From positions 4,268,164-4,332,163 of the forward strand of contig NZ_CP063356.1 of NCBI RefSeq assembly GCF_001866075.3: 64,000 bases of DNA, given 5' to 3'. The notes beneath the pieces were generated by a model that saw only the letters and a list, made by a program, of their open reading frames with translations, was not told the origin of the DNA and searched no databases. Positions 28,301-44,968 of the stretch are shown here, in pieces. The stretch comes from Anaerobacillus isosaccharinicus. GTDB taxonomy: Bacteria; Bacillota; Bacilli; Bacillales; Anaerobacillaceae. Each line of letters starts with the position of its first letter. Within the stretch, counting starts at the first letter, position 1. A program made the position numbers and the translations under genes.

Positions 28301-29317
28301 AGTTTCCTTACACCAATTCAGTTTATAAACTGTAAATTCTTTAGATAAATTATAAGCTGCTTGCCAAGCTAGAGTGGTTTTTCCTTGACCACAAGAAGAT
28401 TTAATTACCGTAATTTTATTTTCCGTAATAGATTCTTCTATTTCTTTTTCTAAATTTTTTCTTCTAATAGGCAAACCATTTATTATATCAGCGGGAGATG
28501 CTTTTTTACCCTCGTAATATTCCATATTTTCCTTTGCTGTTTTTAACTTATTAAAGTCTATCTTTTCAAACCAATGAAAGGCTGGATTTTGGAACCCTCT
28601 TGCTACATCATCTTTTACACTTTGAACAATTTCTCTTAACATTGGATGAGTTATCTTTCGTCTATTCTTTGCGGCTTGGAATATGCTATAAAATAAGGAG
28701 TTAATAAAAAGCTGTTCATTACCTGTGCTAATTTCATATTTATCAATCATAAGACAGCTAATTTTTTGTTCTAATTCATTCTGTGTTACTTTCTCAAATT
28801 TTAATTGCTTACTAAAAACTTGAAAATTAAAATCGGTCCAATCCCATTGGGGATTTTCTTCTTTAATTTTATCAATTTTATTTGTCCAGAACTGGATGAC
28901 GGTTTTATCTAACTTGTAAGCTATTAACATGGAAAGATTACCTTTTGCAATTTCCATATCATATACTAATCTAAAATATTTATTAGTATTTTGTTTATCA
29001 GTTAAATAAACCTCTAAGAAATTCGATAAAATACTATCAAAAAAACTAGCATCTTGCTTTTCTTTTGAGTGCTTTAATTGTACATGTTCAACAATCATAT
29101 GATCATCAAGCATTGAGCTAAAAGTATCCACATCCTCAATGCCCTCTAATTTTAAACTTTTATTTTCATCATCCAAAAACTCCAAAGCTATATAGCAAGA
29201 ATAAACTAATTGATAATCATACCCCATTAATGCTATTTGTCCACCTGTTCTTGCCCTTTCTATCTCTGCCCCTGTTCTTCTTTTCTTATTCTGTTTCTTT
29301 TTTGTTCCCTTTGCCAT
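25346..29317 (-). CDS. STAND NTPase with N-terminal Cap4/DUF4297-type nuclease domain (Avs-like defence protein)
   Basis: A 1323-residue protein. Residues 20-240 look like the dsDNA-endonuclease domain of the Cap4/DUF4297 group: 'GGQIALMGYDYQ' (25-36), acidic 'EGIEDVD' (58-64) and 'HVQLKH' (78-83) giving the E/D...QxK core of a PD-(D/E)xK fold. A STAND P-loop follows: Walker A 'SSCGQGKTT' (307-315), Walker B 'LIVLDNLD' (360-367) and 'LLITSRED' (390-397). The remaining ~900 residues are helical and probably the sensor. This order matches antiviral STAND (Avs) proteins, which on recognising phage proteins oligomerise and degrade DNA. It ends the operon, 15 bases after a membrane-protein gene. 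The sensor target cannot be inferred. Confidence 0.75.
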   Translation of the reverse strand: MAKGTKKKQNKKRRTGAEIERARTGGQIALMGYDYQLVYSCYIALEFLDDENKSLKLEGIEDVDTFSSMLDDHMIVEHVQLKHSKEKQDASFFDSILSNFLEVYLTDKQNTNKYFRLVYDMEIAKGNLSMLIAYKLDKTVIQFWTNKIDKIKEENPQWDWTDFNFQVFSKQLKFEKVTQNELEQKISCLMIDKYEISTGNEQLFINSLFYSIFQAAKNRRKITHPMLREIVQSVKDDVARGFQNPAFHWFEKIDFNKLKTAKENMEYYEGKKASPADIINGLPIRRKNLEKEIEESITENKITVIKSSCGQGKTTLAWQAAYNLSKEFTVYKLNWCKETKEIDNIIQFINSRSKLGEKTLIVLDNLDVDLKEWNKLAQLLEGKITLNYRLLITSREDDWYTFAGDQSNLMKLKIINISLNRDQAKNIYENLKERNKIHDEIRNWQSAWERVEDKQILIEYIYLLTHGEMLEERLSQQLKNINTDKVSNIKLEVLRLISLADVIGIPLRSDKLINEITSESGFNADINEILQSLENEFFLKAEVGSYVEGLHPVRSQHISDMLHLYLPTSRTLSKLLSIVDESYIAKLFSQIALHVDIEQDEFYSSLSKKMKLKSYAFIVSTIEGLFSGSVLKYFKENKTYFDNANERGGLLLFLMEIGPWNSRSEMDFELKTLKRINEIVPENENIKYLLNMTEQIEKLDIEKSDLYIYAYYLYNELNSGILKRDISSYSMLASWLSRLSKNFDIVTSLNYDEIWMNREKWNFDEISLLMYEFHSLDPNKYKEFIEKNKDSIFRFLKVKTNSIKIFELEDDLCIEYILTPQDVGKANNYSVKRINEVCRFLPIYNKYITTAIKLEIELYSGLNLPDESYKAMPIDKIKLGFNTDLTVLWKNSILSHYEFPSIYDWQEHWMNIRSSIITFIKLNICVLEYVLKQSKLTPEVRIIDNVRMEIFQSLLKEVLFPRENRPFENPIFLKGEISMVQQGFFVGIKNYIESYLNIVSRKKEGNASGIAIYNLRDAKYKLSAMQSGFRYIFQHTTFYFDLDEIEEQESLWLDRLINMNEFYLNHLPRKGGYTRAAVKEWNKEKENDRMQLINDKMKKLSEESSFNFLKTKKLYCERNINFLPVSVTDVDVNSETEMGRLIFTITDLTDVIESDVHYIVLLFLTSKFEHVGNGLRVATSYLKHLKESIMTGKDLITDNLLLPLPIEINQQHLECFEENIKVLMTPTKYSYENVDVFLTLLWEYYQYQVYFDISDNIERDFLQIENGRKVLKLDQLLNELQQNCDPQLFVRLSRLKNDVLENKAVFNDPQLNAWVNELALVLK

Positions 29318-29332
29318 TCCATCACCTCACCA

Positions 29333-30121
29333 TCAAGATTGTGATATTTTTTCTTTTTTTGCTCTTATCCTCTCTTCTTCTTCCTTTTTAAAATTCTCTG
29401 CTTTTAATCTCTCAAATCCTTTTGGGTTTAATTCACAATGATAATAATAATGCCGCATTTTCATATTCTTATTATCTTTTTCTATACTTTTTCGGTCCCG
29501 ACCCTCTTTTATTTTCCAGAATCTCTCTAACGACTTATACAAAGTATAAACAAACGCAATTGCACCTACATAATAATTCTGCCAACCAAGGTAAGCTATG
29601 ATTATAGAAAAAGCTATCCATGAAAATAATGAAATATCAATAAACTTCTTTATTTTCTTTGCTTCATCTATTTTATGATTAGCCTCCCTTTCTTTCTGTT
29701 CTCTTTTTATGTAAGCTAATCCTTGATAAACCTTACTTATATTTTCATCTTTAGTTTGTTCTATTGGAAGTTCATTATCTGATATCTTATTCCAAGATTT
29801 AATTATTCGATTCGGCTTTGTATCAATATATCCTATCAATTCACTATTTGGCTTTACATTACTGAGAGAGATCTTATCTCCAGATTTATCAAAAGCCATC
29901 ACTAAAAGGGGTAACGGAAACCTTTTTAGCCATAGGTTTAATTCATATTCCATATTTTTAACTATCTCATCAGTTTTTACATCTAATGTATATACTAGAT
30001 CTAATTGAGCGAACTTTAAACTTTTTAAATTAACAGGATGATATTCTACATAGTAATTAACCCTATTTTCCGTAATTTCTTCCCATATATATTCCCGCCA
30101 AATTGCATTTATTTTAGACAT
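29333..30121 (-). CDS. Membrane protein of unknown function, operon partner of the STAND nuclease
   Basis: A 262-residue protein not recognised. Residues 1-160 are soluble and contain aromatic-rich strands ('NYYVEYHPVNLKSL', 'LWLKRFPLPLLVMAF'). Two hydrophobic segments lie near 165-202 ('ISLFSWIAFSIIIAYLGW', 'YVGAIAFVYTLYKSL'). A charged, probably coiled-coil tail ends in 'EEEERIRAKKEK'. It starts the two-gene operon with the STAND nuclease (15-base gap) and so may act with it, as membrane sensor, regulator or inhibitor. The promoter region (30122-30208) is cut short by an IS4-type element. Confidence 0.7.
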   Translation of the reverse strand: MSKINAIWREYIWEEITENRVNYYVEYHPVNLKSLKFAQLDLVYTLDVKTDEIVKNMEYELNLWLKRFPLPLLVMAFDKSGDKISLSNVKPNSELIGYIDTKPNRIIKSWNKISDNELPIEQTKDENISKVYQGLAYIKREQKEREANHKIDEAKKIKKFIDISLFSWIAFSIIIAYLGWQNYYVGAIAFVYTLYKSLERFWKIKEGRDRKSIEKDNKNMKMRHYYYHCELNPKGFERLKAENFKKEEEERIRAKKEKISQS

Positions 30122-30208
30122 GCCTTATACCCCTTTACTTCATTTAGCCCTAGTTATCAATACTCGATATTTAATATACTTCCAATATTTATAATTTTGT
30201 TTTATTAA

Positions 30209-31738
30209 CTCAACTTTCGCACCAATAAAGTAGGTGATCCACGTTGATTGTTAAAGGCCTGCGGCCTTTTCATTATGTTACTTGACAATGTTAATGAAAA
30301 ATGAAAAACACCTCGTTCTTTTGGTATAGTGTAATTGACTAGAAAACACTACCATACAGAAGAGGTGCTCCCTATATGATAGACCAAAATAGCCAATACA
30401 ATCAACTGCCAAATGAACTTGATTCTGTTTTTTCTGAGCTGGAAATGTCTAAACATCTACGCAAGGCTGGAATTAAAAAGTCCTTTGGTTTCAGCTGTTC
30501 TTACTTATTTCAACTCATTTTTTGTTTGATATTTCAACATAAAAATTGGTACACCCTTCTTGATTCAAAGAAGGCAGATAAGTTTCCTGCCAAGGATTCT
30601 GTCTATCGTTTTTTAAATCAATCAACATTTAATTGGCGCCGTTTCTTACTGCTATTAAGCACCTTTACAATTAAGAAAGTGAGTCGCCTTACTGACAAAA
30701 GTCGTCCAAAAGTGTTCGTTTTTGATGATTCTGCTTATGATCGAAATCGTAGTAAAAAGGTTGAATTACTTGCACGTTGTTTTGACCATGCCTCTCTTAA
30801 AATGCGTTTCTATAAGGGGTTCCGTATGTTGACTATGGGGTGGTCTGACGGGCATACATTTATGCCGATTGACTTTTCCTTGGTCAGTTCCAAAACGTCA
30901 CAAATCAATGGAATCTCCGAACATATAGACAAACGCACATGCGGTTATAAACGTCGGGAAAATGCCCTACAAACTTTGCCTGAACAAATCCCAGACATGA
31001 TCAGACGTGCGTTAGATAGTGGAATAGAAGCCAGTTATGTCCTCATGGATTCTTGGTTTACTTTGCCACCACTTGTCAAAAACATTGTTGATCAAGGATT
31101 AGACGTGATTGGCATGGTCAAAGAAACAAAACAGCGTTACAACGTAAGCGGAGAAATGGTTTCATTAAAACAGCTTTACCGCCTAGCTGGACCCGTTCAA
31201 TCAAGGAAAGGAATACTTCGTTCCATTCATACAACTATGGCTAATGGAACACCAATTAAAGTTGTATTTATTCGAAATAGAAACAAGAAAAGCGAATGGC
31301 TAGCCATCCTCAGCACCGATCGCACTCTTTCCGAACAAGAAATCGTTCGAATCTATGGAATGCGTTGGGATATTGAGGTTTTCTTTAAGACGGCCAAATC
31401 ACTCTTAAAACTTGAAAAAGAGTTTCAAAGCCGTTCATATGATGCGCTTATAAGCCATACAACTATTGTCTTTGCTCGTTTTATCGTGCTATCTTGGCAA
31501 AACCGCTGTAACACCGACCAACGTACGATTGGAGGTCTTTTTTACGAGCTATGTGACGAAGTCAATGAACTTGATTGGGCTGTTGCTTTACAGCAGCTAA
31601 TCGAGCTTCTTCAAGATGCGCTTGAACAAACAAATAAGAAAATCAAAAAGTTAATACAAAGTCAACTGGAGCAGTGGATCTCAGGCCTACCTAATTATAT
31701 CAAGGCTTATTTGCCGATTTCACTCTGCGAAAGTTGAG
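30209..31738 (+). mobile_element. IS4-family insertion sequence, complete
   Basis: 1530 bp bounded by 13-bp inverted repeats CTCAACTTTCGCA (30209-30221) and its complement ending at 31738, flanked by the direct repeat TTATTAA (30202-30208 and 31739-31745). It carries one intact transposase gene whose stop codon lies inside the right inverted repeat. Confidence 0.9.
30376..31737 (+). CDS. IS4 family transposase
   Basis: A 453-residue DDE transposase of the IS4 family. 'VFVFDDSAYDRNRSKKVELL' gives the first catalytic Asp, 'SYVLMDSWFTLPPL' the second, and 'YGMRWDIEVFFKTAKSLLKL' the Y-(2)R-(3)E-(6)K signature with the Glu. The length is normal and there is no frameshift, so the element could be active. 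ATG follows AGAGGTGC. It sits 167 bases inside the left inverted repeat. Confidence 0.95.
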   Translation: MIDQNSQYNQLPNELDSVFSELEMSKHLRKAGIKKSFGFSCSYLFQLIFCLIFQHKNWYTLLDSKKADKFPAKDSVYRFLNQSTFNWRRFLLLLSTFTIKKVSRLTDKSRPKVFVFDDSAYDRNRSKKVELLARCFDHASLKMRFYKGFRMLTMGWSDGHTFMPIDFSLVSSKTSQINGISEHIDKRTCGYKRRENALQTLPEQIPDMIRRALDSGIEASYVLMDSWFTLPPLVKNIVDQGLDVIGMVKETKQRYNVSGEMVSLKQLYRLAGPVQSRKGILRSIHTTMANGTPIKVVFIRNRNKKSEWLAILSTDRTLSEQEIVRIYGMRWDIEVFFKTAKSLLKLEKEFQSRSYDALISHTTIVFARFIVLSWQNRCNTDQRTIGGLFYELCDEVNELDWAVALQQLIELLQDALEQTNKKIKKLIQSQLEQWISGLPNYIKAYLPISLCES

Positions 31739-31818
31739 TTATTAACTTATAAAATATTGAAAGTATTTATGAATCGTAACCTTAAAAAAGGTGTATTCCT
31801 TCCACTCGCCTTATAATA

Positions 31819-32526: not shown

Positions 32527-34938
32527 TTATTTATTACTCTTTCTCTCAAAATGAACATGCAACCTGTATTCACAAATCTCTTTCGTCCATTCATAAAGCA
32601 GTTCTTCCTCTTCTTTAGCAACTTCAAAGTTGAACGAAAACGAATTGTTTTCAAAAGTTACTAATTCTTTGCCCCATTTGGACATTGGCATTTTGGCAAT
32701 TAGTTTACTTACTTTATTCTCATCGTATTCCCAAAGCCTCATTGTTTCTTTGTCTGAGAAATCGATCTTTTTTCGGTATTCTGTTTCGGTTAGGTACTGA
32801 TGGAAGAAAGGTGCCGTCTCTTCTGGTGTAATCGGTTTATACCAGTTTTCTACTCCTCTATTTAACATCGCAAGTAAGACAACCATCTTATAGCTTTTTG
32901 TCATTCCAGTTTTTTCAACTTCAACAAGCCAAGGCTCATACCTTTTGAATAGTTCTTTTTCTCTATTACTTAATTCATTCGCCCAATAAAGGAACCCAAT
33001 ATACGACTTGAACTCTTGTTTGTACTGCTTCGTATCTGATTGACCTTTTAAGTGAAGCTCTAAATAAGAAGGTCTTCTACCCAACTCTTGTTTTAACGTA
33101 AAATAATCATCTTTTAGCTTATCTTTTCTTGGCTGAATTTTTCTAGCCATTTCGGTTAGAAGGTCGATGACTTGTGTTTCTAAATTAATGACGCAGTTTA
33201 CCGGTGCACTTGCTTGGATTTCTCTTGGCTTTTTCTGCTCACCTGAAGTATCAAATAAACTTAGCTTTACATCTGCATTACGATAGTTTCCAATTAAGTC
33301 GATCACGACACAATAGTCTTTTTCTGGGTGTAACCGTAGGCCTCGACCTATTTGCTGGGTGAAAACAGTTAGTGATTCGGTAGGTCGGACAAAAAGAAGC
33401 GTATCAACGAGTGGAATGTCGACTCCCTCATTAAATAAATCAACGGTAAAAATCGCATCGATTTCTCCCTTTTCTAATAATTGAATTGCTTTATAACGAC
33501 TTACTTCTACCTGTTTTGAATGTAAGGCAATCACTTTGTAGCCGTTTTGATTAAAATACTTCGCTAAGAAATCAGCTTGTTTAATTGAAGAACAGAAGAC
33601 AAGCGTTCTTGTTTGCTTATGCTTTTCCCATGCTTGTAGGATGTTCTGTGCCATTTCCTCACGGAGCTGAAGTTGTAGTAACTCTTCTTCCGCATACCGA
33701 TTTCCTAACCAAGTAATTTGGCGATAATCTGTATCGTCATAGACACCTTGATAATGAAATGGCGCTAACCATTGCCGCTGAATTGCTTCAAGAAAATCTA
33801 TTCGGAAAGCAACGTTCCCATCACAAATCGCATAAACGTCTTTATTGTCATTACGATCTGGAGTCGCGGTAATTCCTAATAAAAAATTAGGTTTAAAATA
33901 ATCTAATATTCGTTGATACGAATTTGCTGCTGCATGGTGAAACTCATCAATAACAATTAAGTCAAATTCATCTGGTGAAAATACTTCAATATGGTGCTTT
34001 AAGCTTAGGGTAAAAATTGATGCAAAAATATAATCAGCTTGTCCTTCTTTTTGCTTCCCGTTATATATTCCAAACGTTTTGTCACCTAAAACGTGCTCAA
34101 ACGACTTTTTTGCTTGATAAAGGATTTCTTCACGATGGGCCACAAAGAGCACTCGTTTAAACTTTTTTGCAAAAAAGGCAGCTAAATACGTTTTCCCTAA
34201 TCCAGTAGCCATCACAACAAGAGCGCTTTTATATCCTTCTTCTAACGTTGTCTCGAGTTCTCGTAAAGCCTCTGGTTGTGCAAAACGAGGCTTTACTTCC
34301 TCCCCATAGCTATTGGAGCCATCTTTAATGATATCAATAGAAGTTAGTTCTTCTTCTTTATTTCGAAGCATTAGCTCTACTTCTTCCCTTTTGCTCCATG
34401 TTCTTACTAGATTAGGATTGCTTTGATGGAATTGCTCATACCGATCCTCGTAAAGTTTGATCGTCTCGTGATTGACTTCTATCGTTTGTTCGTGGTACAT
34501 CAGTTTTGAAAATTGATCGAGGCCATCTTCATATACTCCAGGACAATCTGAAATAGATAAATTCCATTCAACACCTGTTGTTAGCGCTGATCTTGATAAA
34601 TTTGATGAACCCACAATAAAATGACCGTTATTAGGATATTGAAATAAATAAGCCTTCGGGTGAAATGAAGTACCATTACTATTCCATAGTCGAACTTCAA
34701 TGTTTTCATGAATGCTTAGTAACGTTTTGAGCGCTTCAGGCTGTGTAATAAATAAGTAGTCACCCGTACATATTTTAATCTCTACGCCTCGTTCAGCAGC
34801 TTTTCTTAATGGTTCGCGAAGAACTTCACAGCCAGATTTCATGACAAACGAAGTTAAAATGCAAATACTTGAAGCACTCTCCATCTTCGTCAAAAGATGG
34901 TCAACCAAGTTTTGCGTAATTAATTCTGCCTTAGTCAT
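32527..34938 (-). CDS. PLD-nuclease/DEAD-box helicase fusion
   Basis: About 803 residues. The N-terminal 160 residues carry one phospholipase D-type motif (H95-x-K97 and SSN at 113-115, 'FHPKAYLF', 'VGSSNLS'), normally a nuclease when dimeric. A superfamily 2 helicase follows: Walker A ATGLGKT (246-252), DEFH (333-336) and 'QQIGRGLRL' motif VI. The C-terminal ~200 residues are helical, without a clear DUF3427. ATG 34938 lies after AGAGGTTGAGG and overlaps the MazG-like stop by eight bases (ATGACTAA). Last gene of the HIT-MazG-helicase operon; a defence role is inferred from context. Confidence 0.85.
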   Translation of the reverse strand: MTKAELITQNLVDHLLTKMESASSICILTSFVMKSGCEVLREPLRKAAERGVEIKICTGDYLFITQPEALKTLLSIHENIEVRLWNSNGTSFHPKAYLFQYPNNGHFIVGSSNLSRSALTTGVEWNLSISDCPGVYEDGLDQFSKLMYHEQTIEVNHETIKLYEDRYEQFHQSNPNLVRTWSKREEVELMLRNKEEELTSIDIIKDGSNSYGEEVKPRFAQPEALRELETTLEEGYKSALVVMATGLGKTYLAAFFAKKFKRVLFVAHREEILYQAKKSFEHVLGDKTFGIYNGKQKEGQADYIFASIFTLSLKHHIEVFSPDEFDLIVIDEFHHAAANSYQRILDYFKPNFLLGITATPDRNDNKDVYAICDGNVAFRIDFLEAIQRQWLAPFHYQGVYDDTDYRQITWLGNRYAEEELLQLQLREEMAQNILQAWEKHKQTRTLVFCSSIKQADFLAKYFNQNGYKVIALHSKQVEVSRYKAIQLLEKGEIDAIFTVDLFNEGVDIPLVDTLLFVRPTESLTVFTQQIGRGLRLHPEKDYCVVIDLIGNYRNADVKLSLFDTSGEQKKPREIQASAPVNCVINLETQVIDLLTEMARKIQPRKDKLKDDYFTLKQELGRRPSYLELHLKGQSDTKQYKQEFKSYIGFLYWANELSNREKELFKRYEPWLVEVEKTGMTKSYKMVVLLAMLNRGVENWYKPITPEETAPFFHQYLTETEYRKKIDFSDKETMRLWEYDENKVSKLIAKMPMSKWGKELVTFENNSFSFNFEVAKEEEELLYEWTKEICEYRLHVHFERKSNK

Positions 34939-35257
34939 CCTCAACCTCTACTAAAAAGATTTTCTCCTGAAAACCACCACGATCTTTTGCCTTTCTTTCG
35001 CGGATCTTTTCTACTTCTTCTATGGAAGAACCATGGCAAATCGCTAGTGCATGGATAATTTCTAAAACATCTGCCAATTCTTCAAGTACATCTTCATGTG
35101 TCGTTGTACTCATATATTCTTCGAGTTCTTCAAAGCTCTTTTTCTTTAACTCTGTTATGTATTGTTCGTCATTTAATAGCGAAATCGTAAATTTCTTACC
35201 TGTTTTTTCTATAATTTCGGGAATTCTATCTCTCACTAATTTATTGTATGTAGGCAT
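34931..35257 (-). CDS. MazG-like nucleoside triphosphate pyrophosphohydrolase
   Basis: A 108-residue all-alpha NTP pyrophosphatase of the MazG-like superfamily. 'NKLVRDRIPEIIEK' opens it, and metal-binding 'EELEEYM' and 'EELADVLEIIHAL' (the E-E-x-x-D pattern) supply the metal ligands. It removes pyrophosphate from an unknown nucleotide. It lies 15 bases after the HIT gene and overlaps the helicase by eight bases, so the three are coupled. Confidence 0.85.
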   Translation of the reverse strand: MPTYNKLVRDRIPEIIEKTGKKFTISLLNDEQYITELKKKSFEELEEYMSTTTHEDVLEELADVLEIIHALAICHGSSIEEVEKIRERKAKDRGGFQEKIFLVEVEDD

Positions 35258-35272
35258 GTTAATTGCTCCTTA

Positions 35273-35644
35273 TTAATATATTCTTTTTTCTGGGATAACT
35301 CCTCTGACTCCTCCTCTTGGGTTTTCCATATCTCCCTTATAACGAGGAATTAAGTGAACATGAACGTGGAAAATCGTTTGGCCAGCTGTTTCGCCACAGT
35401 TAATGCCAATGTTGTAGCCATCTGGAGAGTATCGTTCTTCTAATAATGTTTTTCCTTGTTCAAGTAGTTGGTTAATAGCTTCCCGCTCTTCGTTCTTTGT
35501 ATCAAAAAAATCACTTACATTGCGTTTAGGGATGATTAAGAGGTGGCCTTGATTTACAGGATATATATCAAAAATTGCAAATGCTAAATCGTTTGATAGG
35601 ACAATGTTTTCTGGGTTGCAGAAAGGGCAAGGTTTATCGTACAT
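35273..35644 (-). CDS. HIT family hydrolase
   Basis: A 123-residue histidine-triad protein. 'HVHVHLIPRY' (about residues 94-103) carries the triad, and N-terminal CPFCN fits the zinc-binding type of HIT proteins. HIT proteins hydrolyse nucleotidyl phosphoramidates or dinucleotides. First gene of the HIT-MazG-helicase operon. A TATACT -10-like sequence lies upstream on the minus strand near 35665-35670. Confidence 0.85.
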   Translation of the reverse strand: MYDKPCPFCNPENIVLSNDLAFAIFDIYPVNQGHLLIIPKRNVSDFFDTKNEEREAINQLLEQGKTLLEERYSPDGYNIGINCGETAGQTIFHVHVHLIPRYKGDMENPRGGVRGVIPEKRIY

Positions 35645-36017: not shown

Positions 36018-38171
36018 TTACTTTCTTGCTTTACAATCTATGAATTTAAATTCAAATTCGTTTAAGTACTTAATAGTACCTTCGATATCAATTTCATGCG
36101 CAGCATGTATTCTCCAAAATAATTCATCCGGTAAATACGGGGAGAACTTGGAGTTATATAATTCTGACTCAGTAATAAGAGGAAATAATCTTGCCTCTTC
36201 CCATTCCTCCTTTTTAATAAAGTTCAGGACATCTGTAGAAAGAGGGCCTTCAATCCTCATTCGATTTAATCCATCCTCAATTTTAGCACCAAAGCCTATT
36301 GCTCTAAGCAACCACCCCAGTGTTTGAGCAATTACTGTTCCCGTAAACGACTCCAGTAAAAAACTGCCATCTTCCTCTCTTATCACTCTATCACCAGGTT
36401 TTATCTGATTATCATGGTAAAATTTCCTCTCATCATTAAGAGAATCAAAAGCTTCCTGGTTGATGTAATGAAACTGGTGGTCGTCACATAGTATTTCCAT
36501 GATTTTTTCGCCAATTTTCTTATGCAGTTTTAATCCGCTGCTCGAATATCTAGGGGGCTTTCCGTTTACCGCTTTTAAAACATAAATCTTATTCTTTTCC
36601 GTATCGATTTGTTTAATTGTCCAGAGTTTCCCGGCTAAAATAATGTTATCTCCTTCAGAACCTAAAAATGTACTCTTGTCTAATGTACCAATCTTTCTTA
36701 CACCTTCTAATACCGTGTACTCTTCCGGAGTAATAAAAACGGCGTAAAAATCACGACTTCTTAAAATACGTTCTCCAGCTAAGCCGACAATAAGCTCATT
36801 AGGCCCTTTAACCATTTCCAAATAGTCCTGCTCTAGCATATGGTTAATAAGTAACTGAACGTCAGTGGTATTTAATTGATAGAAGATGTGATTTCTTTCA
36901 AGCCTCTCTAACAATTGACTCATCGTTATTCCGTTCGTTTCGGTGCATATGGAGATAATCTGATGAAACAGAATGTCATAGGGTTGAGCATACCCTGTAG
37001 CTGGTTCAATCCACTTATCTAAAGCAAGTTCCATTACAGCCAGTGATTGAAATAAGCTATCCCTCTTGGTAGTGTACATTTGTAGCATCTGTCTGGCATC
37101 TCGCTTTCGACCAGACCTACCAAGCCGTTGCTTCAGTGACGATACGGTAAATGTGCTATTTAATTGAATAACAATATCCACATCTCCAATATCCAAACCT
37201 AATTCCAACGTACTTGTAGCTACTACAGTTTTAGGCATCTTGGATTCCATCATAGTTTTTTCTACATATTCTCGTTCCTTTTTATCAATAGATGAGTGAT
37301 GAGCATAATAGGTCTCACCAACTTTCTCCCTTGCTGCTAAACGATTTAAAAAAACAGTAACTTCTTCGACTGATCCACGGTCATTGCAGAAAATGATTGC
37401 TTTTTGGTTTCGTGTTAATTCCCTTATATCTTCAAATAGAGAAACTTCTAGTTTGTTTCCCGCTTCTCCGTCCTCTTTTTCCGGAAAATGCATTAAGTAG
37501 TACAATAATTGCTTCTCGCTAACTTTTTCATCTACTATTTCAACTTCTTCAGGTGAAGTATAGTTCACCCAATTCTTCACGAATTCAAAGTTATCGATGG
37601 TTGCGGATAACCCAATAATCCGTGGTCTGTTCTGAGCTATTGTTTCTATTCTGGATAGTAGAGAACGAAGATGTACGCCGCGGTCATTATTTAGAAAGGA
37701 GTGAATTTCATCGATAACTACAAAATCTAGGCCTTTGAATAGGACTCTAATTTGTTCGGTCCTATTAATAAACAAACTTTCAATCGACTCAGGGGTTATT
37801 TGTAATATCCCTGCGGGTTCTTTTAAAAATTTCTTTTTCACGCTTTGACTGACATCTCCATGCCATTTATGGATAGGAATATGCGTATGTTCGCAGAGCT
37901 TTTCAATTCGTTCAAACTGATTATTAATTAATGCTTTTAAAGGTGATATATATAATACCTTTAGTTCAGAAGCTGCTGCCTTTTCTACTAGGGACAATAT
38001 AGGCAAAAAGGCTGCCTCTGTTTTACCAGAAGCAGTCCCTGATGATACGATAACATCTCTAGAGCTATTGATGATAACAGGTATGGTACTATCTTGAATA
38101 GGAGTGAATCGGTCCCATTTCATGTCCCATATTTTTTTTTGAATGTTTTTGCTTAACAAATTAAATGTCAT
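36018..38171 (-). CDS. Lhr-type DEAD/DEAH helicase (BrxHI-like)
   Basis: A 717-residue superfamily 2 helicase of the Lhr type: Q-motif-like 'FTPIQDSTIPVI', Walker A 'SGTASGKTEA' (44-53), DEIH (154-157), SAT (189-191), motif VI 'QRLGRSGR' (348-355), then a long C-terminal region. This shape matches helicase BrxHI of type 2 BREX. It is the third gene of a tight operon (three-base gap after the ATPase). No PglX methylase or PglZ phosphatase is in the window, so it is not part of a full BREX system. Confidence 0.8.
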   Translation of the reverse strand: MTFNLLSKNIQKKIWDMKWDRFTPIQDSTIPVIINSSRDVIVSSGTASGKTEAAFLPILSLVEKAAASELKVLYISPLKALINNQFERIEKLCEHTHIPIHKWHGDVSQSVKKKFLKEPAGILQITPESIESLFINRTEQIRVLFKGLDFVVIDEIHSFLNNDRGVHLRSLLSRIETIAQNRPRIIGLSATIDNFEFVKNWVNYTSPEEVEIVDEKVSEKQLLYYLMHFPEKEDGEAGNKLEVSLFEDIRELTRNQKAIIFCNDRGSVEEVTVFLNRLAAREKVGETYYAHHSSIDKKEREYVEKTMMESKMPKTVVATSTLELGLDIGDVDIVIQLNSTFTVSSLKQRLGRSGRKRDARQMLQMYTTKRDSLFQSLAVMELALDKWIEPATGYAQPYDILFHQIISICTETNGITMSQLLERLERNHIFYQLNTTDVQLLINHMLEQDYLEMVKGPNELIVGLAGERILRSRDFYAVFITPEEYTVLEGVRKIGTLDKSTFLGSEGDNIILAGKLWTIKQIDTEKNKIYVLKAVNGKPPRYSSSGLKLHKKIGEKIMEILCDDHQFHYINQEAFDSLNDERKFYHDNQIKPGDRVIREEDGSFLLESFTGTVIAQTLGWLLRAIGFGAKIEDGLNRMRIEGPLSTDVLNFIKKEEWEEARLFPLITESELYNSKFSPYLPDELFWRIHAAHEIDIEGTIKYLNEFEFKFIDCKARK

Positions 38172-38174
38172 ACC

Positions 38175-39494
38175 TTATTCTCCTTCTGTAGTAGCAAACC
38201 TAGAGTGAACGGTGTTTCGTGGCTCTGGTGCTGGTACTTCCTCTTCTCCAAAGATATCAATCCGATTGAAATATGGATTTTGGTGCAGAATGTTCAGAGC
38301 ACCTAAAAAGGCACGAATAACATCCCCTACTGTTAAATTTTCATCCGCTCCCGGCCTAGAATACTCTTGAATGATAAAACGCTTAATCTCATCATCTGTG
38401 ACAGTCGATTGGTATACATGATGGGTAGCATGAATTTCTCTTAATTTCTGCAACAGAACATAGGTTTCATCATGCTTTAACGGTGTTAATTTGATGACTG
38501 GTTGAGATAAGTCTCGGAACTCGTTTGTTTCAAAACGGTTAGATTCTAATCGTCTTTTCAGTGCTCCGTAACTAAATAAGCCTCGTCTTTCATCTTCTAA
38601 AAACTCTGGGGTGCCACCCAGTGTGAAATAAAGACCTTCAACATTCCCTTGTAAGGTGTCATTATATATTTTTAAAATAGTTTCGTAGTTCTTGTCTCTT
38701 GTCTGAGGATGAGTTATCTTATAAAGATTAATTGCTTCATCTAGATTAACCACTAACCCTGAATATCCGATTTGCTTCACAAACTGAGAGACGACTTTCA
38801 GATAGTTGTAGTAATTGTTGTCATCAATAATGTCACGAACCCCTAAGTCTGTTCTTGCTTCTGTTTTCGTCTTATATTCCCCTCTGAGCCACTTTATCGC
38901 TTTTCGCTGCAATTCACTGTTGTCTTCTACAAATCCCTTGAAATACTGGATTAGAATGCGCGAGAAGTCATATCCTCCAATCAGGTCATCCATCTTAGAA
39001 ACCGTATAGGTTATCTCGTGTTCTACATCTCGGATAAAGTCTGGATTATCAAATGCTACCGAGCCATAATTTTTGTCTATAACAACCTTTGATTGTACGT
39101 CACTAATCCATTTATCGAGGACAGTGGGTAGAGCCCCACCATCTGGTACCGTAGCAATTGCCATATTCTTCATTAGTTCCGTATAGATTGAGACAGCTTT
39201 TCCATCGCTACCGTATAATCGACGTTCCGGTGTAAAATCGGCTTTCGCTACAACAAACTTCTCCTGGAAGGCGATTTGTTGAATAAGTGCTTGTATAAAA
39301 CTCTTCCCACTTCCAAAGGGGCCAATAAATAATTTAATAACCGAAGAACCGCCCTTAATATTTTGTAAGTCTGCAAGAATTTGTTTGGCTTCGTCTGCGC
39401 GACCTACCATAATGTATTGTAATCCTCTGCTTGGCACCACTCCACCGGATAAAGAGTTTAATATTGCGGATGAATCACGCTTCTTAATATTCAA
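38175..39494 (-). CDS. BrxD-like P-loop ATPase (DUF2791/BrxC_BrxD family)
   Basis: A 439-residue AAA-type ATPase with Walker A 'GPFGSGKS' (58-65), Walker B 'LVVNLDEA' (247-254), and family marks 'RGLQYIMVGRADEAKQIL' and 'KADFTPERRLYG'. It matches the ATPase family shared with BREX BrxD. It lies between the TerB-domain gene and the helicase with three-base gaps on both sides, so all three are co-translated. In BREX-2 the same pair (ATPase, helicase) is found; here the partner is a TerB protein instead. Role: probably ATP-driven DNA or protein remodelling. Confidence 0.85.
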   Translation of the reverse strand: MNIKKRDSSAILNSLSGGVVPSRGLQYIMVGRADEAKQILADLQNIKGGSSVIKLFIGPFGSGKSFIQALIQQIAFQEKFVVAKADFTPERRLYGSDGKAVSIYTELMKNMAIATVPDGGALPTVLDKWISDVQSKVVIDKNYGSVAFDNPDFIRDVEHEITYTVSKMDDLIGGYDFSRILIQYFKGFVEDNSELQRKAIKWLRGEYKTKTEARTDLGVRDIIDDNNYYNYLKVVSQFVKQIGYSGLVVNLDEAINLYKITHPQTRDKNYETILKIYNDTLQGNVEGLYFTLGGTPEFLEDERRGLFSYGALKRRLESNRFETNEFRDLSQPVIKLTPLKHDETYVLLQKLREIHATHHVYQSTVTDDEIKRFIIQEYSRPGADENLTVGDVIRAFLGALNILHQNPYFNRIDIFGEEEVPAPEPRNTVHSRFATTEGE

Positions 39495-39497
39495 TTA

Positions 39498-41417
39498 TTA
39501 CGCCCCTTTCAGCATAAGAGCAATATCGGTGAACTCGTCGTAAAGAATAATGTTGTCGCCTTCTAACTCCACGATATTATCCCCTAAATGTTCATTTGCT
39601 TTTTCGTTTAACTCACTTAGGAATAAACCTAACATTTTCCCATTCTTCTTCACAAAAGCTGTTGCTTCGTCTTGAGAGTATTCTCCATTGTTGAACGAGC
39701 TTAAAAATTCTTTTTCTGCATCAGATAACGAACTCATAAATTTCTCTTCATCTCCATCAGTAGCATCAAAGAGGGAGTCTAGTCCTGTGTCACCCTCAAT
39801 CGTCTTGTCTAATTCTGTAACCTCAGGAGTAGTTTCTGTTGTATTTGCATCTGGTGTCGCCGTTACAAAAGAACCAGTAGACTCCAGTTGTGTTTCTTCG
39901 TTTCCGCTTCCCTCGAACACTCCTTGTAGATGTTTATTTTCTAGATTTAAACGTTCAATATTCTCATCGTTAAATTCAATGGTTGGCTTTGTAGTAGTTA
40001 CTGCTGCCACTTCTGTTTTTCCCTCTACTAACGGTCGTTGTGGGATAACACTTCCGGTAGCTTGAGTGTCCTTCTCCTTGACTGTCTTAAAACGTTCGTT
40101 CGCTTTCATAGCGCCTTCTGAGTATCTATCTAATAATTCATTCTTAAAATCAGCTGGTAGCAATTCTTCTTCCACCTTTATCTCCCTTTTTTCACCGTTT
40201 AAAATACGAGTGACATTCTCAGATAATCGGAAAAGAGCTGTAATTTCATCATATAGAGTATCAGTAGGTTGAACTTCTGTATGGTAAACATGGATAGGTT
40301 CATTTCCTCTTCCGATAACCGCTCCTGAAAACAAATGAGCTACGTTGCGAACTCGTTTATTCGTAAACCAGACATCTTCTACTTTTTCGTTTTGTTGATT
40401 GTGATGCGCTTCTAATAACAAAAGACTGTCCTTGAATACTTTATAAATTTTATTCTTGTTATCCAGAAAGAATTTTGTTTCCCGGTAATTACGGATATAA
40501 GTTCTCCAGTGTGTAATGGATATTTTATTTAATGGTTTATGGTCTTCAGTAATCGCTTTATACACTGGAGGAACATAATCACGGTATTTCCATTCGCTTG
40601 CTAATTCTTCTTCCTTTAGTTCGTTTAGCATGTCTTGAATCCATCGAGGCAAGTAGTTAGAAAGCTTAGGGTGCATATCTACATAGCTTTCATATAACCG
40701 TACAAGCATACTGACATTAAACGACGCTTTAGGGTTAAAGGAGTAGTTCAACAATTCGTACACAAAGACGAAGATATAACTGAGGTCAACTTCTAAGTAA
40801 TTCCCTTTAAGCGCTTCTTCTCTCCAATGGAAGTACCATTTTAATTGCTTGTCGTTCATATGGTCAAAAGTTGTCCAATATGCCTGTAATGGTATTTCTT
40901 TTGTGGGTCCTTGTGTTCGATTTCTATAGTTATGTGATTTCTTAATAAAGTCTGAGTGGGAATGCGAGTAAGAGAATTCAAGACGAACGCTTCCACTCTC
41001 GTTTGTAGACTTCTGAGATTTTAATACTTTATCTACATTTTTAAGAATAGAAGCGGGTGTTTCTAAATGTAAGTACTTCGGTAAGATGAGTTCTTCTTCG
41101 TTGTAGAAATTTTTATTAAATAAAGAAGTTGTTCTTTTAGGTTTTGATTTACTCTCTTTAGATTTAGATTGGACAAATACCTTTGCTTGAGAAGACTTTT
41201 CCTCTAAAGTTTTTTTGTCATCTGTTGAATCTAACTGATTATGCCACTTTTTAATAAATAACATATCAATCCACCCTAAAAATATCGGAATATATGTCCA
41301 ACAGAAAATTAGATATATAAGTCCTCTTATGTACTTTTTGTAATAAAAAAGGTGTCCGCCAATTCCTCCAAGAAAGAATGCTAGGAGATAGCCCACGGTT
41401 TTTGATTTTTTCATCAT
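39498..41417 (-). CDS. TM2 - TerB-N - TerB-C domain membrane protein
   Basis: A 639-residue protein. Residues 6-55 are a TM2 domain (two membrane spans, 'GYLLAFFLGGIGGHLFYYKKY', 'LGWIDMLFI'), then a lysine/serine linker, a TerB-N domain from about 175 ('QLKWYFHWREEALKGNYLEVD', 'LSYIFVFVYELLNYS'), a disordered Thr/Glu-rich linker (~445-545), and a TerB-C domain at the end (~550-639). It starts the operon with the BrxD-like ATPase and Lhr helicase. TerB-N/TerB-C proteins are tied to stress and phage response; membrane anchoring here could make it a sensor. Function undetermined. Confidence 0.85.
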   Translation of the reverse strand: MMKKSKTVGYLLAFFLGGIGGHLFYYKKYIRGLIYLIFCWTYIPIFLGWIDMLFIKKWHNQLDSTDDKKTLEEKSSQAKVFVQSKSKESKSKPKRTTSLFNKNFYNEEELILPKYLHLETPASILKNVDKVLKSQKSTNESGSVRLEFSYSHSHSDFIKKSHNYRNRTQGPTKEIPLQAYWTTFDHMNDKQLKWYFHWREEALKGNYLEVDLSYIFVFVYELLNYSFNPKASFNVSMLVRLYESYVDMHPKLSNYLPRWIQDMLNELKEEELASEWKYRDYVPPVYKAITEDHKPLNKISITHWRTYIRNYRETKFFLDNKNKIYKVFKDSLLLLEAHHNQQNEKVEDVWFTNKRVRNVAHLFSGAVIGRGNEPIHVYHTEVQPTDTLYDEITALFRLSENVTRILNGEKREIKVEEELLPADFKNELLDRYSEGAMKANERFKTVKEKDTQATGSVIPQRPLVEGKTEVAAVTTTKPTIEFNDENIERLNLENKHLQGVFEGSGNEETQLESTGSFVTATPDANTTETTPEVTELDKTIEGDTGLDSLFDATDGDEEKFMSSLSDAEKEFLSSFNNGEYSQDEATAFVKKNGKMLGLFLSELNEKANEHLGDNIVELEGDNIILYDEFTDIALMLKGA

Positions 41418-41737: not shown

Positions 41738-44700
41738 CTAAACCACCTTATTCGCTCTCGGTACTAACTTCGCTGGCATTTCTTCGTTCAACTTCCAAAC
41801 AAAGCTCATTGGTTTAGTGCCGGAATGGCTTACGTATTCGGCGGTACCTAGGAACGTAAATGGTGATGTGTAGCCATTTTCGGTTTTGTATTCTCTGACG
41901 AACAAGGCGATCTTGTGGTTGTTCTTTTTGTGATGAATATAGCGCTGTGCTGTTTTGCTCTCTGGTGATACTCGGCTTTGTGTTTCCCAGTGGAAAAGTC
42001 GTTCGTTAATGGCATAGTCGTCGTACAAGGTTGATGGTGAGAAGTCTTTTTCCGATTTGTTTAATGTAATAAAGAAGATGTCTAGGTTTTTCGTTTCAAA
42101 TTGTTTCACACCTTCTCGAAACGCTGGACTTTGCTCTTCGTTAAAATGATCAAAGGCTGCAAGTATCTGCGACGTTGTGTATTGGCTATGGACTTTTAAC
42201 GGACACGAAAACGAAAAATCGTTGTCAATCTCAACATAGTCGATCATTGAATAGTTGTATTGGAGGATCGCCTTCATTTCTTCGCGCATTTCCTCTGAAC
42301 TTAAAATTGCCTCAATTGCTTCATGGAACGATTGAAATCCTTCTTTTGGTGGAGCTGCGTTGTAAAAGGAATAATAAAGGATTCCTAGCATTTGTTTTTC
42401 AGTTTCAGTAGTCACCGTTTGTTCATCTATATATCGAATTAGATAGGTTAGCAAAGCAGCCGAGTTTAGATGAAACAAGTTCGGTAACCGCTTCGTAATG
42501 AATATTTCATCGTCACAAGTAAAATCTTCTCGTAATCCCGCCTCTACTTTCATGCGCACAAATGAGCGGTCTTTGCTTTTTCCATAAAAGTCATAAATCG
42601 AATAATGATAATGCTTAAGGAAGTTTGCTAGTGTTAGCTCAAGTCCTGTGTCCTCTTCGAAGTACTTCATTTTGCTAACGAGGTTTTTCCTTGTTAAAGA
42701 GCTTTCTTTGATGTTTCGTAGAATATATTCCTTGGCCTGTTTTTCTAATTGAATAAAACAACCTTTAGGAATGTTGAAAAAACCGTTTTCTACATAATGT
42801 TTAACAGAATGCTTCGTCCGACCAATTAGAGCCCGAAACTTTTCTTCAAAAGAATAGTTTTTGTGAGCTTGTCCAACAAAGTCAAGAACAGTTAGGCAAT
42901 CTTTTCCTTCTGAAAGTCGTAAGCCTCTTCCTAATTGCTGCAAAAAGACGGTTAAACTTTCAGTTGGCCGTAGAAACAGAATGGTATTCACTTCAGGAAT
43001 ATCAATTCCTTCATTATATAAGTCAACAACGAAAATAAAGGTGATTTCGCCTTTTAGTAATTTGGATTGAGCTGCCTCTCTTAAGTTTCGATCAACACTA
43101 CCGTAAAGCGCGATCGATGGAATGTTCGCTTTTGTAAAAACGTCAGCCATATACTTGGCGTGTTCAATCGATACACAAAACCCTAGACCTTTTACCTCGT
43201 CTAGATCAGTGACATATTTATAAAGACTACTAATAATTTGGTTGCTGCGAATTTTATCCGCGGTATAAACGTTCTCAAGCTCTTTAATCTCATAGCCTTT
43301 TCGGCTCCACTTTAGCTTTGATAGGTCCACCGTATCTGTGACGCAAAAATATTGAAACGGACTTAGTAGCTTTTGATCAATCGCAGCCGTTAAGCGCATT
43401 TCTGCAGCAATCGTATCATCAAAATAAGTCAGCACATCTTTTCCATCCATCCGCTCTGGTGTCGCGGTTAGGCCTAAGAGAATTTTTGGCTTGTAGTAGC
43501 TTAGTAGCTTTTGGTACGAAGCCGCTGCCGCATGGTGGAATTCATCAACGATAATAAAATCATAAAAGTCACTTGTCGTTTTTTCATAGAGCTTTGATGA
43601 GTTAAAGCTTTGGATCGACACAAACAAATGGTCGAGTGAATCAGGAGTATGTCCACCAACTAATAAATCACCAAAGTTAAAATCTCGTAAAATGGCACGA
43701 AAGGTTGTCCTACTTTGTTTTAGGATTTCTTCACGATGTGCCACAAATAATAGCTTTGCCTGACGACCATTTTTTTTATAAAAACGCTTGTAGTCAAAGG
43801 CTGAAATGACAGTTTTCCCAACGCCAGTTGCCGCAACGAGTAAGTTTTTCATCCGACCAAATACTTCGCGCTCTGCTTGAAGCTTTTCTAGGATCTCTTT
43901 TTGGAAGTGATAGGGTTGGATATCAAACTGAAAGTGATTTTCTTCGTTGTCATCGTTTTTCGTTTTACTTAACGCTGTCTTTAACCGCTGTTGGTCCTCT
44001 TCTTTTTCACTGTCAAAAAAGATAAATTCACCGTCGTTCCAATAGCTTTCAAAGGTCGCATCGAATTTTTTCACAATATCAAACGAATCTTTCTCAGTTA
44101 TTTTCAAGTTCCACTCTAATCCTGACGTAAGCGCAGGGTTAGATAAATTTGAAGAGCCAATATATGCCGTCGTAAAGCCCGTTTCTCGCTTAAACATATA
44201 GGCTTTGGCATGAAGTCTCGTGCGGTCTTTATCATAAGAGATTTTCACTTCAGTGTTGGCGAGTTTGCTTAACTCGATAATGGCTTTATAGTCTGAAGCT
44301 TCCATATAAGAAGTTGTGATCACTCTTAGTTTGTTGCCACGTTCCGTAAACGCTCTTAAGTCTTCAATAATACATCGAAGACCACTCCATTTAATGAAGG
44401 AAACGAGCATATCAATCTGATCTGCAGATTGAATTTCGCGACTCAGTTCACCTAACATGTTCGGTTCATGGTGCGAGCCTGTGAAGAGCGAACTTTGCGA
44501 AATCGGGGTGATTGGGCGAACGACCCCTTCTTTTTTCAAACTCCTCGTGCTATTGAGTTTTGAATAGATGGAAGTCAGTACTTCCCCTTCTTCGGCAATT
44601 TGTAGGGACTGGAATTCTTTGTCATTGAGACGTTCACTTAAAATCATGATGATCTCATTGCATGTTTTTATTTGGTTTAATAGCGCTACTTGATCATCCT

Positions 44701-44881
44701 TCTCGTCATCATGAACAAAGTTAAGCGCTTTTCTTGTTATCGATGATATGTATGTAGCCAGCATCTTCCGCGCTTCTTCTACGTCTAGATTTTCTGTTTG
44801 AATGTCGTGGTTTGTGAGTAGGCTAAGTTCATTTTTTAGCTTTTTATTGATGATTTCTTCGTATATACCTTCAGGGAGCAT
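41738..44881 (-). CDS. PLD-nuclease/DEAD helicase with C-terminal DUF3427
   Basis: A 1047-residue protein: helical N-terminus, PLD motif (H224-A-K226 in 'RLHAKAYMF', SSN 243-245), superfamily 2 helicase (Walker A ATGVGKT 351-357; DEFHHA 446-451; motif VI 'QQLGRGLRL'), and a C-terminal DUF3427 region of about 300 residues. It is a paralogue of the 32527 protein with an extra N-terminal ~130 and C-terminal DUF3427. The family acts on DNA by inference; it occurs in defence islands with HIT and nucleotide-hydrolase genes. It stands alone between two GGGACAGG-type repeats. Confidence 0.9.
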   Translation of the reverse strand: MLPEGIYEEIINKKLKNELSLLTNHDIQTENLDVEEARKMLATYISSITRKALNFVHDDEKDDQVALLNQIKTCNEIIMILSERLNDKEFQSLQIAEEGEVLTSIYSKLNSTRSLKKEGVVRPITPISQSSLFTGSHHEPNMLGELSREIQSADQIDMLVSFIKWSGLRCIIEDLRAFTERGNKLRVITTSYMEASDYKAIIELSKLANTEVKISYDKDRTRLHAKAYMFKRETGFTTAYIGSSNLSNPALTSGLEWNLKITEKDSFDIVKKFDATFESYWNDGEFIFFDSEKEEDQQRLKTALSKTKNDDNEENHFQFDIQPYHFQKEILEKLQAEREVFGRMKNLLVAATGVGKTVISAFDYKRFYKKNGRQAKLLFVAHREEILKQSRTTFRAILRDFNFGDLLVGGHTPDSLDHLFVSIQSFNSSKLYEKTTSDFYDFIIVDEFHHAAAASYQKLLSYYKPKILLGLTATPERMDGKDVLTYFDDTIAAEMRLTAAIDQKLLSPFQYFCVTDTVDLSKLKWSRKGYEIKELENVYTADKIRSNQIISSLYKYVTDLDEVKGLGFCVSIEHAKYMADVFTKANIPSIALYGSVDRNLREAAQSKLLKGEITFIFVVDLYNEGIDIPEVNTILFLRPTESLTVFLQQLGRGLRLSEGKDCLTVLDFVGQAHKNYSFEEKFRALIGRTKHSVKHYVENGFFNIPKGCFIQLEKQAKEYILRNIKESSLTRKNLVSKMKYFEEDTGLELTLANFLKHYHYSIYDFYGKSKDRSFVRMKVEAGLREDFTCDDEIFITKRLPNLFHLNSAALLTYLIRYIDEQTVTTETEKQMLGILYYSFYNAAPPKEGFQSFHEAIEAILSSEEMREEMKAILQYNYSMIDYVEIDNDFSFSCPLKVHSQYTTSQILAAFDHFNEEQSPAFREGVKQFETKNLDIFFITLNKSEKDFSPSTLYDDYAINERLFHWETQSRVSPESKTAQRYIHHKKNNHKIALFVREYKTENGYTSPFTFLGTAEYVSHSGTKPMSFVWKLNEEMPAKLVPRANKVV

Positions 44882-44892
44882 TGGATCACCTC

Positions 44893-44968
44893 GTGGGACA
44901 GAGGGACAGGTTCACTGTCCCAGTTTTAGTTAAAGCATGGGACAAGGGACCTGTCCCCTTGTCCTGTT
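44893..44968. repeat. Dispersed GGGACAGG-type inverted repeat, copy 2
   Basis: GGGACAGGTTCACTGTCCC, a short linker and GGGACAAGGGACCTGTCCCC form two adjacent hairpins. The same order occurs at 56919-56980. It lies just upstream of the DUF3427 helicase. Confidence 0.85.

What the first reader, a model, noticed from the sequence alone, without database searches (positions are those of the whole stretch)
36018..41417. TM2-TerB / BrxD-like ATPase / Lhr-helicase operon without other BREX parts
Three genes with three-base gaps encode a membrane-anchored TerB-N/TerB-C protein, an ATPase of the BrxC/BrxD family and a BrxHI-like helicase. The ATPase-helicase pair is known from type 2 BREX, yet no PglX, PglZ, PglY or PglW is present. 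A TerB protein with TM2 spans in their place suggests a stand-alone, membrane-linked defence or stress module. I recall TerB-N with a DUF2791 ATPase being noted in comparative-genomic work, but not a characterised activity.
Basis: partly seen in the sequence, partly recalled or inferred. Interest (0 to 1): 0.8.

Follow-up and report, generated by a model that had tools for sequence, protein, structure and literature searches.

The report
Shango phage defence with membrane anchor
This three-gene bacterial operon is a member of Shango, an already named anti-phage defence system; its unusual part is that one protein carries a membrane anchor, a swappable front end that may place or tune the defence.

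Summary
In detail: three minus-strand genes with 3-base gaps (36018-41417) encode TM2-TerB_N-TerB_C, a BrxC/BrxD-family ATPase and a BrxHI/Lhr-like helicase. The genome has no hit to the PglZ, PglX and BrxC models tried. But the trio is named: PADLOC calls it SngA, SngB, SngC, i.e. Shango, the latter two far above the BREX models.

What may be new is narrow. SngA is modular: of 20 chosen relatives, 20 have TerB_C, 17 TerB_N, 10 TM2 and 1 TerD. In one genome the trio heads a BREX operon. Most likely SngA docks through TerB_C on SngB, which loads or switches SngC on invading DNA, while TM2 holds the complex at the membrane. Identity about 0.95; mechanism about 0.4, inferred. Whether TM2 in SngA is in print is open: one search paired TM2 with TerB and listed nothing relevant, none paired TerD with Shango, and two key papers were not held.

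The parts
39498..41417 (-). sngA-like gene, 639 aa: TM2-TerB_N-TerB_C
   Evidence: PADLOC SngA 1.2e-52, 178.3 bits, residues 99-631; the first 98 residues are not matched by that model
41262..41414 (-). TM2 membrane domain, SngA residues 2-52
   Evidence: Pfam PF05154 1.2e-11; hydropathy peaks near residues 7 and 32
40572..40970 (-). TerB_N, SngA residues 150-282
   Evidence: Pfam PF13208 3.5e-24
39528..40001 (-). TerB_C, SngA residues 473-630; the one domain found in all 20 relatives scanned
   Evidence: Pfam PF15615 6.8e-11; 20 of 20 relatives
38175..39494 (-). sngB-like gene, 439 aa, TTG start: BrxC/BrxD-family ATPase
   Evidence: PADLOC SngB 1.8e-169, 562.5 bits, against BrxD 170.8 bits; NCBIfam BrxD 170 bits against a cut-off of 350
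39300..39323 (-). SngB Walker A, GPFGSGKS, residues 58-65
   Evidence: G58, G61, G63 and K64 invariant in 14 sequences
36018..38171 (-). sngC-like gene, 717 aa: SF2 helicase of the BrxHI/Lhr kind
   Evidence: PADLOC SngC 1.4e-208, 693.2 bits, against BrxHI 469.2 bits
37701..37712 (-). SngC DEIH box, residues 154-157; SAT at 189 and QRLGRSGR at 348 also present

Best explanation
A Shango anti-phage operon (sngA-sngB-sngC) of a variant whose SngA carries an N-terminal TM2 membrane anchor. Proposed mechanism: SngA is the localiser or sensor. Its TerB_C domain docks on SngB, an AAA+ ATPase of the BrxD kind, which loads or activates the SngC helicase on invading DNA; the helicase blocks replication or strips and unwinds that DNA. 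TM2 keeps the complex at the membrane, where phage DNA enters. Shown: gene content, order, domains, ATPase and helicase motifs, conservation as a trio. Inferred: docking through TerB_C, loading, membrane placement, mode of interference. Pfam found no nuclease domain in the three proteins.
For: PADLOC SngA, SngB and SngC models match, SngB and SngC near full length and well above BrxD and BrxHI. The three genes keep their order in Bacillota loci and in one locus each of Bacteroidota, Alphaproteobacteria, Gammaproteobacteria and Actinomycetota. In the SngB tree 44 rows stand apart from 3 weak BrxD-like rows (midpoint root). TerB_C is in 20 of 20 SngA while the front end is exchanged, which points to TerB_C as the shared contact. 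SngA is the least conserved of the three in all 13 comparisons with the window (for L036, L049 and L074 the architecture differs, so SngA numbers there are rough), as expected of a sensor under arms race. Published, seen as passages: anti-phage activity in Pseudomonas; SngC groups with BrxHI, DruE and DpdJ; BrxD proposed as ORC/Cdc6-type loader of BrxHI. The window locus lies among other likely defence genes.
Against: No experiment on this operon. TM2 is not needed for Shango: 10 of 20 relatives scanned lack it. The central TerB domain (PF05099) of the three plasmid-borne SngA is not detected here. The SngB model is poor (pLDDT 57.6), and no solved structure matches SngA or SngB by sequence, so loader function and docking are untested. 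Foldseek gave no match at E 0.001 or better for SngA. In L054-L057 other ORFs separate sngB and sngC.
Confidence: 0.78

Rival explanations
1. A degenerate or stripped type 2/6 BREX locus: the brxD-brxHI pair left behind after loss of the methylase and phosphatase.
For: SngB and SngC are homologous to BrxD and BrxHI; in G185 a TM2-TerB_C/SngB/SngC trio heads a run with BrxA, BrxB, BrxC, PglX and PglZ.
Against: SngB and SngC score far better to the Sng models; BREX genes were not found beside the other trios in the stretches held; the tree sets the Shango SngB apart from weak BrxD-like rows.
Confidence: 0.05
2. A Ter-type stress or metal-response module in which the ATPase and helicase process host DNA after envelope stress, with phage defence as a side effect.
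For: TerB_N, TerB_C, TM2 and in one relative TerD; in one unnamed genus 57 of 75 genomes carry SngB, and in L065 and 4 of 5 further genomes of it the trio lies at one place among housekeeping-like genes.
Against: Own genome has no TerD; the window locus lies among defence-type genes; Shango protects against phages when cloned; patchy in the own genus (2 of 7 genomes, own included, with a strong SngB).
Confidence: 0.1
3. Abortive infection: SngA senses infection at the membrane and the trio kills or stalls the cell rather than clearing phage DNA.
For: TM2 anchor and, by hydropathy only, N-terminal hydrophobic stretches in L074 and L075; no nuclease domain found in the trio.
Against: Johnson et al. 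[quoted passage not shown]
Confidence: 0.2

Closest known systems
Shango (SngABC)
   Same: Three genes in the order TerB protein, ATPase, SF2 helicase; all three PADLOC models matched. Shango is also listed among systems predicted in the Bacillus cereus group (passage).
   Different: TM2 at the N-terminus of SngA and no detectable central TerB domain, unlike the three plasmid-borne SngA L073-L075.
BREX type 2 / type 6 brxD-brxHI pair
   Same: Homologous ATPase and helicase side by side.
   Different: No hit to PglZ, PglX and BrxC models in the genome; BrxD match is under half of the NCBIfam cut-off.
Lhr helicase
   Same: Best solved-structure matches of SngC by sequence include 5v9x and 7lhl, ATP-dependent DNA helicases (that these are Lhr is recalled); WH_Lhr domain just under its cut-off.
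   Different: 717 aa, shorter than the matched chains of 877 and 1508 aa; encoded in a three-gene operon.
Bunzi and Dionysus (other TerB-containing defence systems)
   Same: Use a TerB-type protein (passages of reviews).
   Different: Not compared here by sequence.

Membership tests
Shango | TerB-type protein, ATPase and DEAD/DEAH helicase in one operon | tested here: met
Shango | Homology of each protein to SngA, SngB, SngC | tested here: met
   178.3, 562.5 and 693.2 bits; SngA matched over residues 99-631 of 639
Shango | Central TerB domain (PF05099) in SngA | tested here: inconclusive
   Not detected in the window nor in 17 of 20 relatives; a divergent copy is not excluded by the moderate SngA model
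Shango | SngB falls with Shango ATPases, not with BrxD | tested here: inconclusive
   Separate, but only 3 weak BrxD-like outgroup rows were used, and their own genomes have no PglZ; profile scores favour SngB
Shango | Protection against phages | not testable with these tools
   Published for relatives; not for this operon
BREX | PglZ | tested here: not met
BREX | PglX methyltransferase | tested here: not met
   one model only
BREX | BrxC/PglY ATPase | tested here: not met
   one model; one search finds only SngB
BREX type 2 | PglW kinase | not tested
   No PglW model was run
Tellurite resistance (Ter) operon | TerD in the genome | tested here: not met

The most novel reading that the evidence does not exclude
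SngA is an exchangeable addressing and sensing adaptor: TerB_C plugs any front end (TM2 membrane anchor, TerB_N, TerD, SH3-TM2) onto a conserved SngB-SngC helicase-loading core, and the same core can be plugged onto BREX. In this view Shango and the BREX D-HI pair are one portable DNA-interception engine with swappable sensors, and the TM2 form patrols the membrane at the point of DNA entry.
Probability: 0.3. Interest if true: 0.65.

Novelty: new variant of a known kind. Interest (0 to 1): 0.38.

Why it matters
Shango's mechanism is listed as unknown in a 2026 review (passage). The natural swaps of SngA's front end, with TerB_C kept in all 20 relatives scanned, suggest direct tests: which domain docks, which senses, and whether membrane placement matters. 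The single trio found at the head of a BREX operon ties the two systems together as possible users of one helicase core.

Tried and rejected
Rejected: an unnamed system (one search names it); stripped BREX.

Led nowhere: no solved structure by sequence for SngA or SngB. Foldseek on the SngA model gave no match at E 0.001 or better; many of the weak listed hits are LysR- and MarR-type winged-helix regulators (that family naming is partly recalled), which fits the helix/strand order of the C-terminal domain but proves nothing. The SngB model was too poor to search. Synteny of the window flanks in the genus gave only repeats, short matches and an IS element, so no empty site was found. Literature: ten searches; two listed nothing relevant, 52 nothing on this trio. 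No SngB relative in 50,697 phage records.

Rows dropped: the SngB tree used 47 of 70 rows (close copies from the G076 family thinned). In that tree L034 and L067 were labelled TM2 although their loci do not show the N-terminus; for L067's genome the TM2-like start was afterwards seen by eye, for L034 (contig end) it was not. L042, with a masked stretch, and L035, with a long insert, were left out of the alignment that was folded. The 20 SngA scanned by Pfam were chosen from the loci held; SngA of the f50 genomes (L053-L059) and all but two of the G076 family were not scanned. L034, L039 and L045 are cut by contig ends. In one search I gave 43 handles, not every SngB-positive genome; G099 and the genome of L037 are probably the same.

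Full report
OBSERVATION. Pfam gives TM2, TerB_N and TerB_C in the first, BrxC_BrxD (494.8 bits) in the second, DEAD and Helicase_C in the third. SngB has GPFGSGKS; SngC has DEIH, SAT and QRLGRSGR. The genome, one 5.23 Mb contig, has no hit to the PglZ, PglX and BrxC models tried.

IDENTITY. PADLOC names the three SngC (693.2 bits), SngB (562.5) and SngA (178.3), against 469.2 for BrxHI and 170.8 for BrxD. NCBIfam's BrxD model scores 170 against a cut-off of 350. This is Shango. From passages of PMC10250203: a TerB-like protein, an ATPase and a helicase of P. aeruginosa PA14 gave modest loss of plaquing (10-100-fold) for many but not all phages and generally strong protection in liquid; the paper says Shango was found in E. 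coli with about 10-fold inhibition of two phages, citing Millman et al. 2022, which is not held. From passages of PMC12278908: SngC groups with BrxHI, DruE and DpdJ. From passages of PMC12839542: BrxD is classed as an ORC-Cdc6 AAA+ ATPase that may load BrxHI; 'Shango', 'TerB' and 'TM2' have 0 occurrences in its main text. A passage of PMC11811056 lists Shango among systems predicted in the Bacillus cereus group.

DISTRIBUTION. SngB model: 61 of 398 genomes of the class match at E 0.001 or better, some only weakly; 3 of 7 in the own genus, own genome included, of which 2 strongly; 67 of 148 in the family of G076 and 57 of 75 in its genus. These counts are of SngB; the full trio was looked at only in the loci held. 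Close relatives by protein: 14 loci in genome contigs. Plasmids: 692 of 72,556 records, 449 Klebsiella and 144 Salmonella; the weakest listed row is annotated brxD. Phages: none of 50,697.

NOT TIED TO BREX. PglZ is in 9 of 42 genomes searched (43 handles given, one not held); these 42 include 8 with only a weak SngB match and probably one genome twice. In G185 it is about 15 kb from SngB; in G083 and G051 it is on the same contig but about 1.0 and 0.7 Mb away; for several others the contigs could not be matched. In G185 the order is TM2-TerB_C, SngB, SngC, a UvrD-like helicase, BrxA, BrxB, BrxC, PglX, PglZ. Those BREX proteins find no homologue in 48 of 49 stretches, the window among them; the exception is L049, the same locus. 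The 49 include two without a trio (L060, L061) and some copies of one place. This blast is less sensitive than a profile and sees only the stretches held (6.5-64 kb).

MODULAR SngA. Twenty relatives were scanned: TerB_C 20 of 20; TerB_N 17 of 20 (not L036, L049, L072); TM2 10 of 20 (L032, L033, L035, L044, L046, L047, L049, L050, L052, L072); central TerB 3 of 20 (L073, L074, L075); TerD 1 of 20 (L036, Cytobacillus praedii); SH3_3 1 of 20 (L072, Persicobacter). By hydropathy (19-residue mean of 1.5 or more), 12 of 26 SngA, window included, have no such stretch; L074 and L075 have one near the N-terminus without TM2, so membrane anchoring may recur in another form. Reading the SngB tree, TM2 carriers surround TM2-less Desulfosporosinus and Brevibacillus rows and the TerD row, so the front end seems gained or lost more than once (some forks are weak, and two TM2 labels were assumed when it was built). 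SngA is the least conserved protein in all 13 trios compared with the window; in 4 genomes of the G076 genus against L065 it is 57-61% identical where SngB is 91% and SngC 92%, and in a fifth (L099) 34, 80 and 77%.

STRUCTURE. SngA model: mean pLDDT 66.1, pTM 0.43; helical core about 183-430, low-confidence linkers, and a C-terminal domain with helix-helix-strand-helix-helix-strand-strand order, winged-helix-like. Foldseek: no match at E 0.001 or better. SngB model: pLDDT 57.6, not used.

MECHANISM. I commit to a helicase-loading defence: SngA addresses and senses, TerB_C docks on SngB, SngB loads or switches SngC, SngC disrupts invading DNA; TM2 holds this at the membrane. Each contact is inference. 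The domain counts bear on docking; the published BrxD proposal bears on loading; nothing here tests interference itself.

NOVELTY. The system is known. Ten literature searches were made, over open PMC papers only and mostly seen as listings. One of them paired TM2 domain with TerB (3 papers, 2 listed, neither relevant); none paired TerD with Shango. So the TM2 and TerD front ends and the BREX-headed trio are not known to me in print, but Anantharaman 2012 and Millman 2022 were not held and may describe some of it.

Noticed in passing
window 41738-44881: 1047 aa PLD nuclease-SF2 helicase-DUF3427 protein, PADLOC mREase_IV (776.9 bits), just upstream of the trio on the same strand.
   Followed up: partly
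window 32527-35644: A second PLD-SF2 helicase (805 aa, no DUF3427 hit) in a row with a weakly matched MazG-like protein (108 aa) and a HIT protein (123 aa): an operon-like, possibly distinct defence set.
   Followed up: partly
window 25346-30121: 1323 aa nSTAND NTPase with a 262 aa partner of no Pfam match, 15 nt apart; no PADLOC hit for either. Candidate unnamed STAND defence pair.
   Followed up: partly
window about 30196-31754: Insertion sequence (453 aa DDE transposase); 8 nearly identical copies in the genome, this one included.
   Followed up: partly
window about 44894-44964: Short palindromic GGGACAG...CTGTCCC repeat dispersed in the genome: 26 further matches to the query in the own genome (those listed fall in this part), mostly near 4.32-4.40 Mb and mostly in one orientation; shorter matches in relatives.
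   Followed up: no
G076 genus (L065, L091-L094, L099): SngB in 57 of 75 genomes of the genus. In L065 and 4 of 5 further genomes the trio sits at one place beside a bacteriophytochrome-GGDEF protein, a heme oxygenase and an EamA transporter; in the fifth (L099) and in 5 of 5 from other genera of the family it does not. A common, partly fixed Shango, odd for a defence system.
   Followed up: partly
L036 8860-10011: Cytobacillus praedii: the gene overlapping sngB encodes TerD-TerB_C in place of SngA.
   Followed up: partly
L076 / L077 (G185): Trio with TM2-TerB_C heads a BREX run; a UvrD-like helicase gene lies between sngC and brxA.
   Followed up: yes
L054-L057 (family f50): About 2.1-3.6 kb with other ORFs between sngB and sngC, absent in L053, L058 and L059 of the same family.
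   Followed up: no
L063 7478-9358: SngA-equivalent reading frame is split in two where its relative L062 has one 625 aa gene.
   Followed up: no
plasmids collection: 692 plasmid records hold an SngB relative, mostly Klebsiella and Salmonella; 542 are typed conjugative.
   Followed up: no
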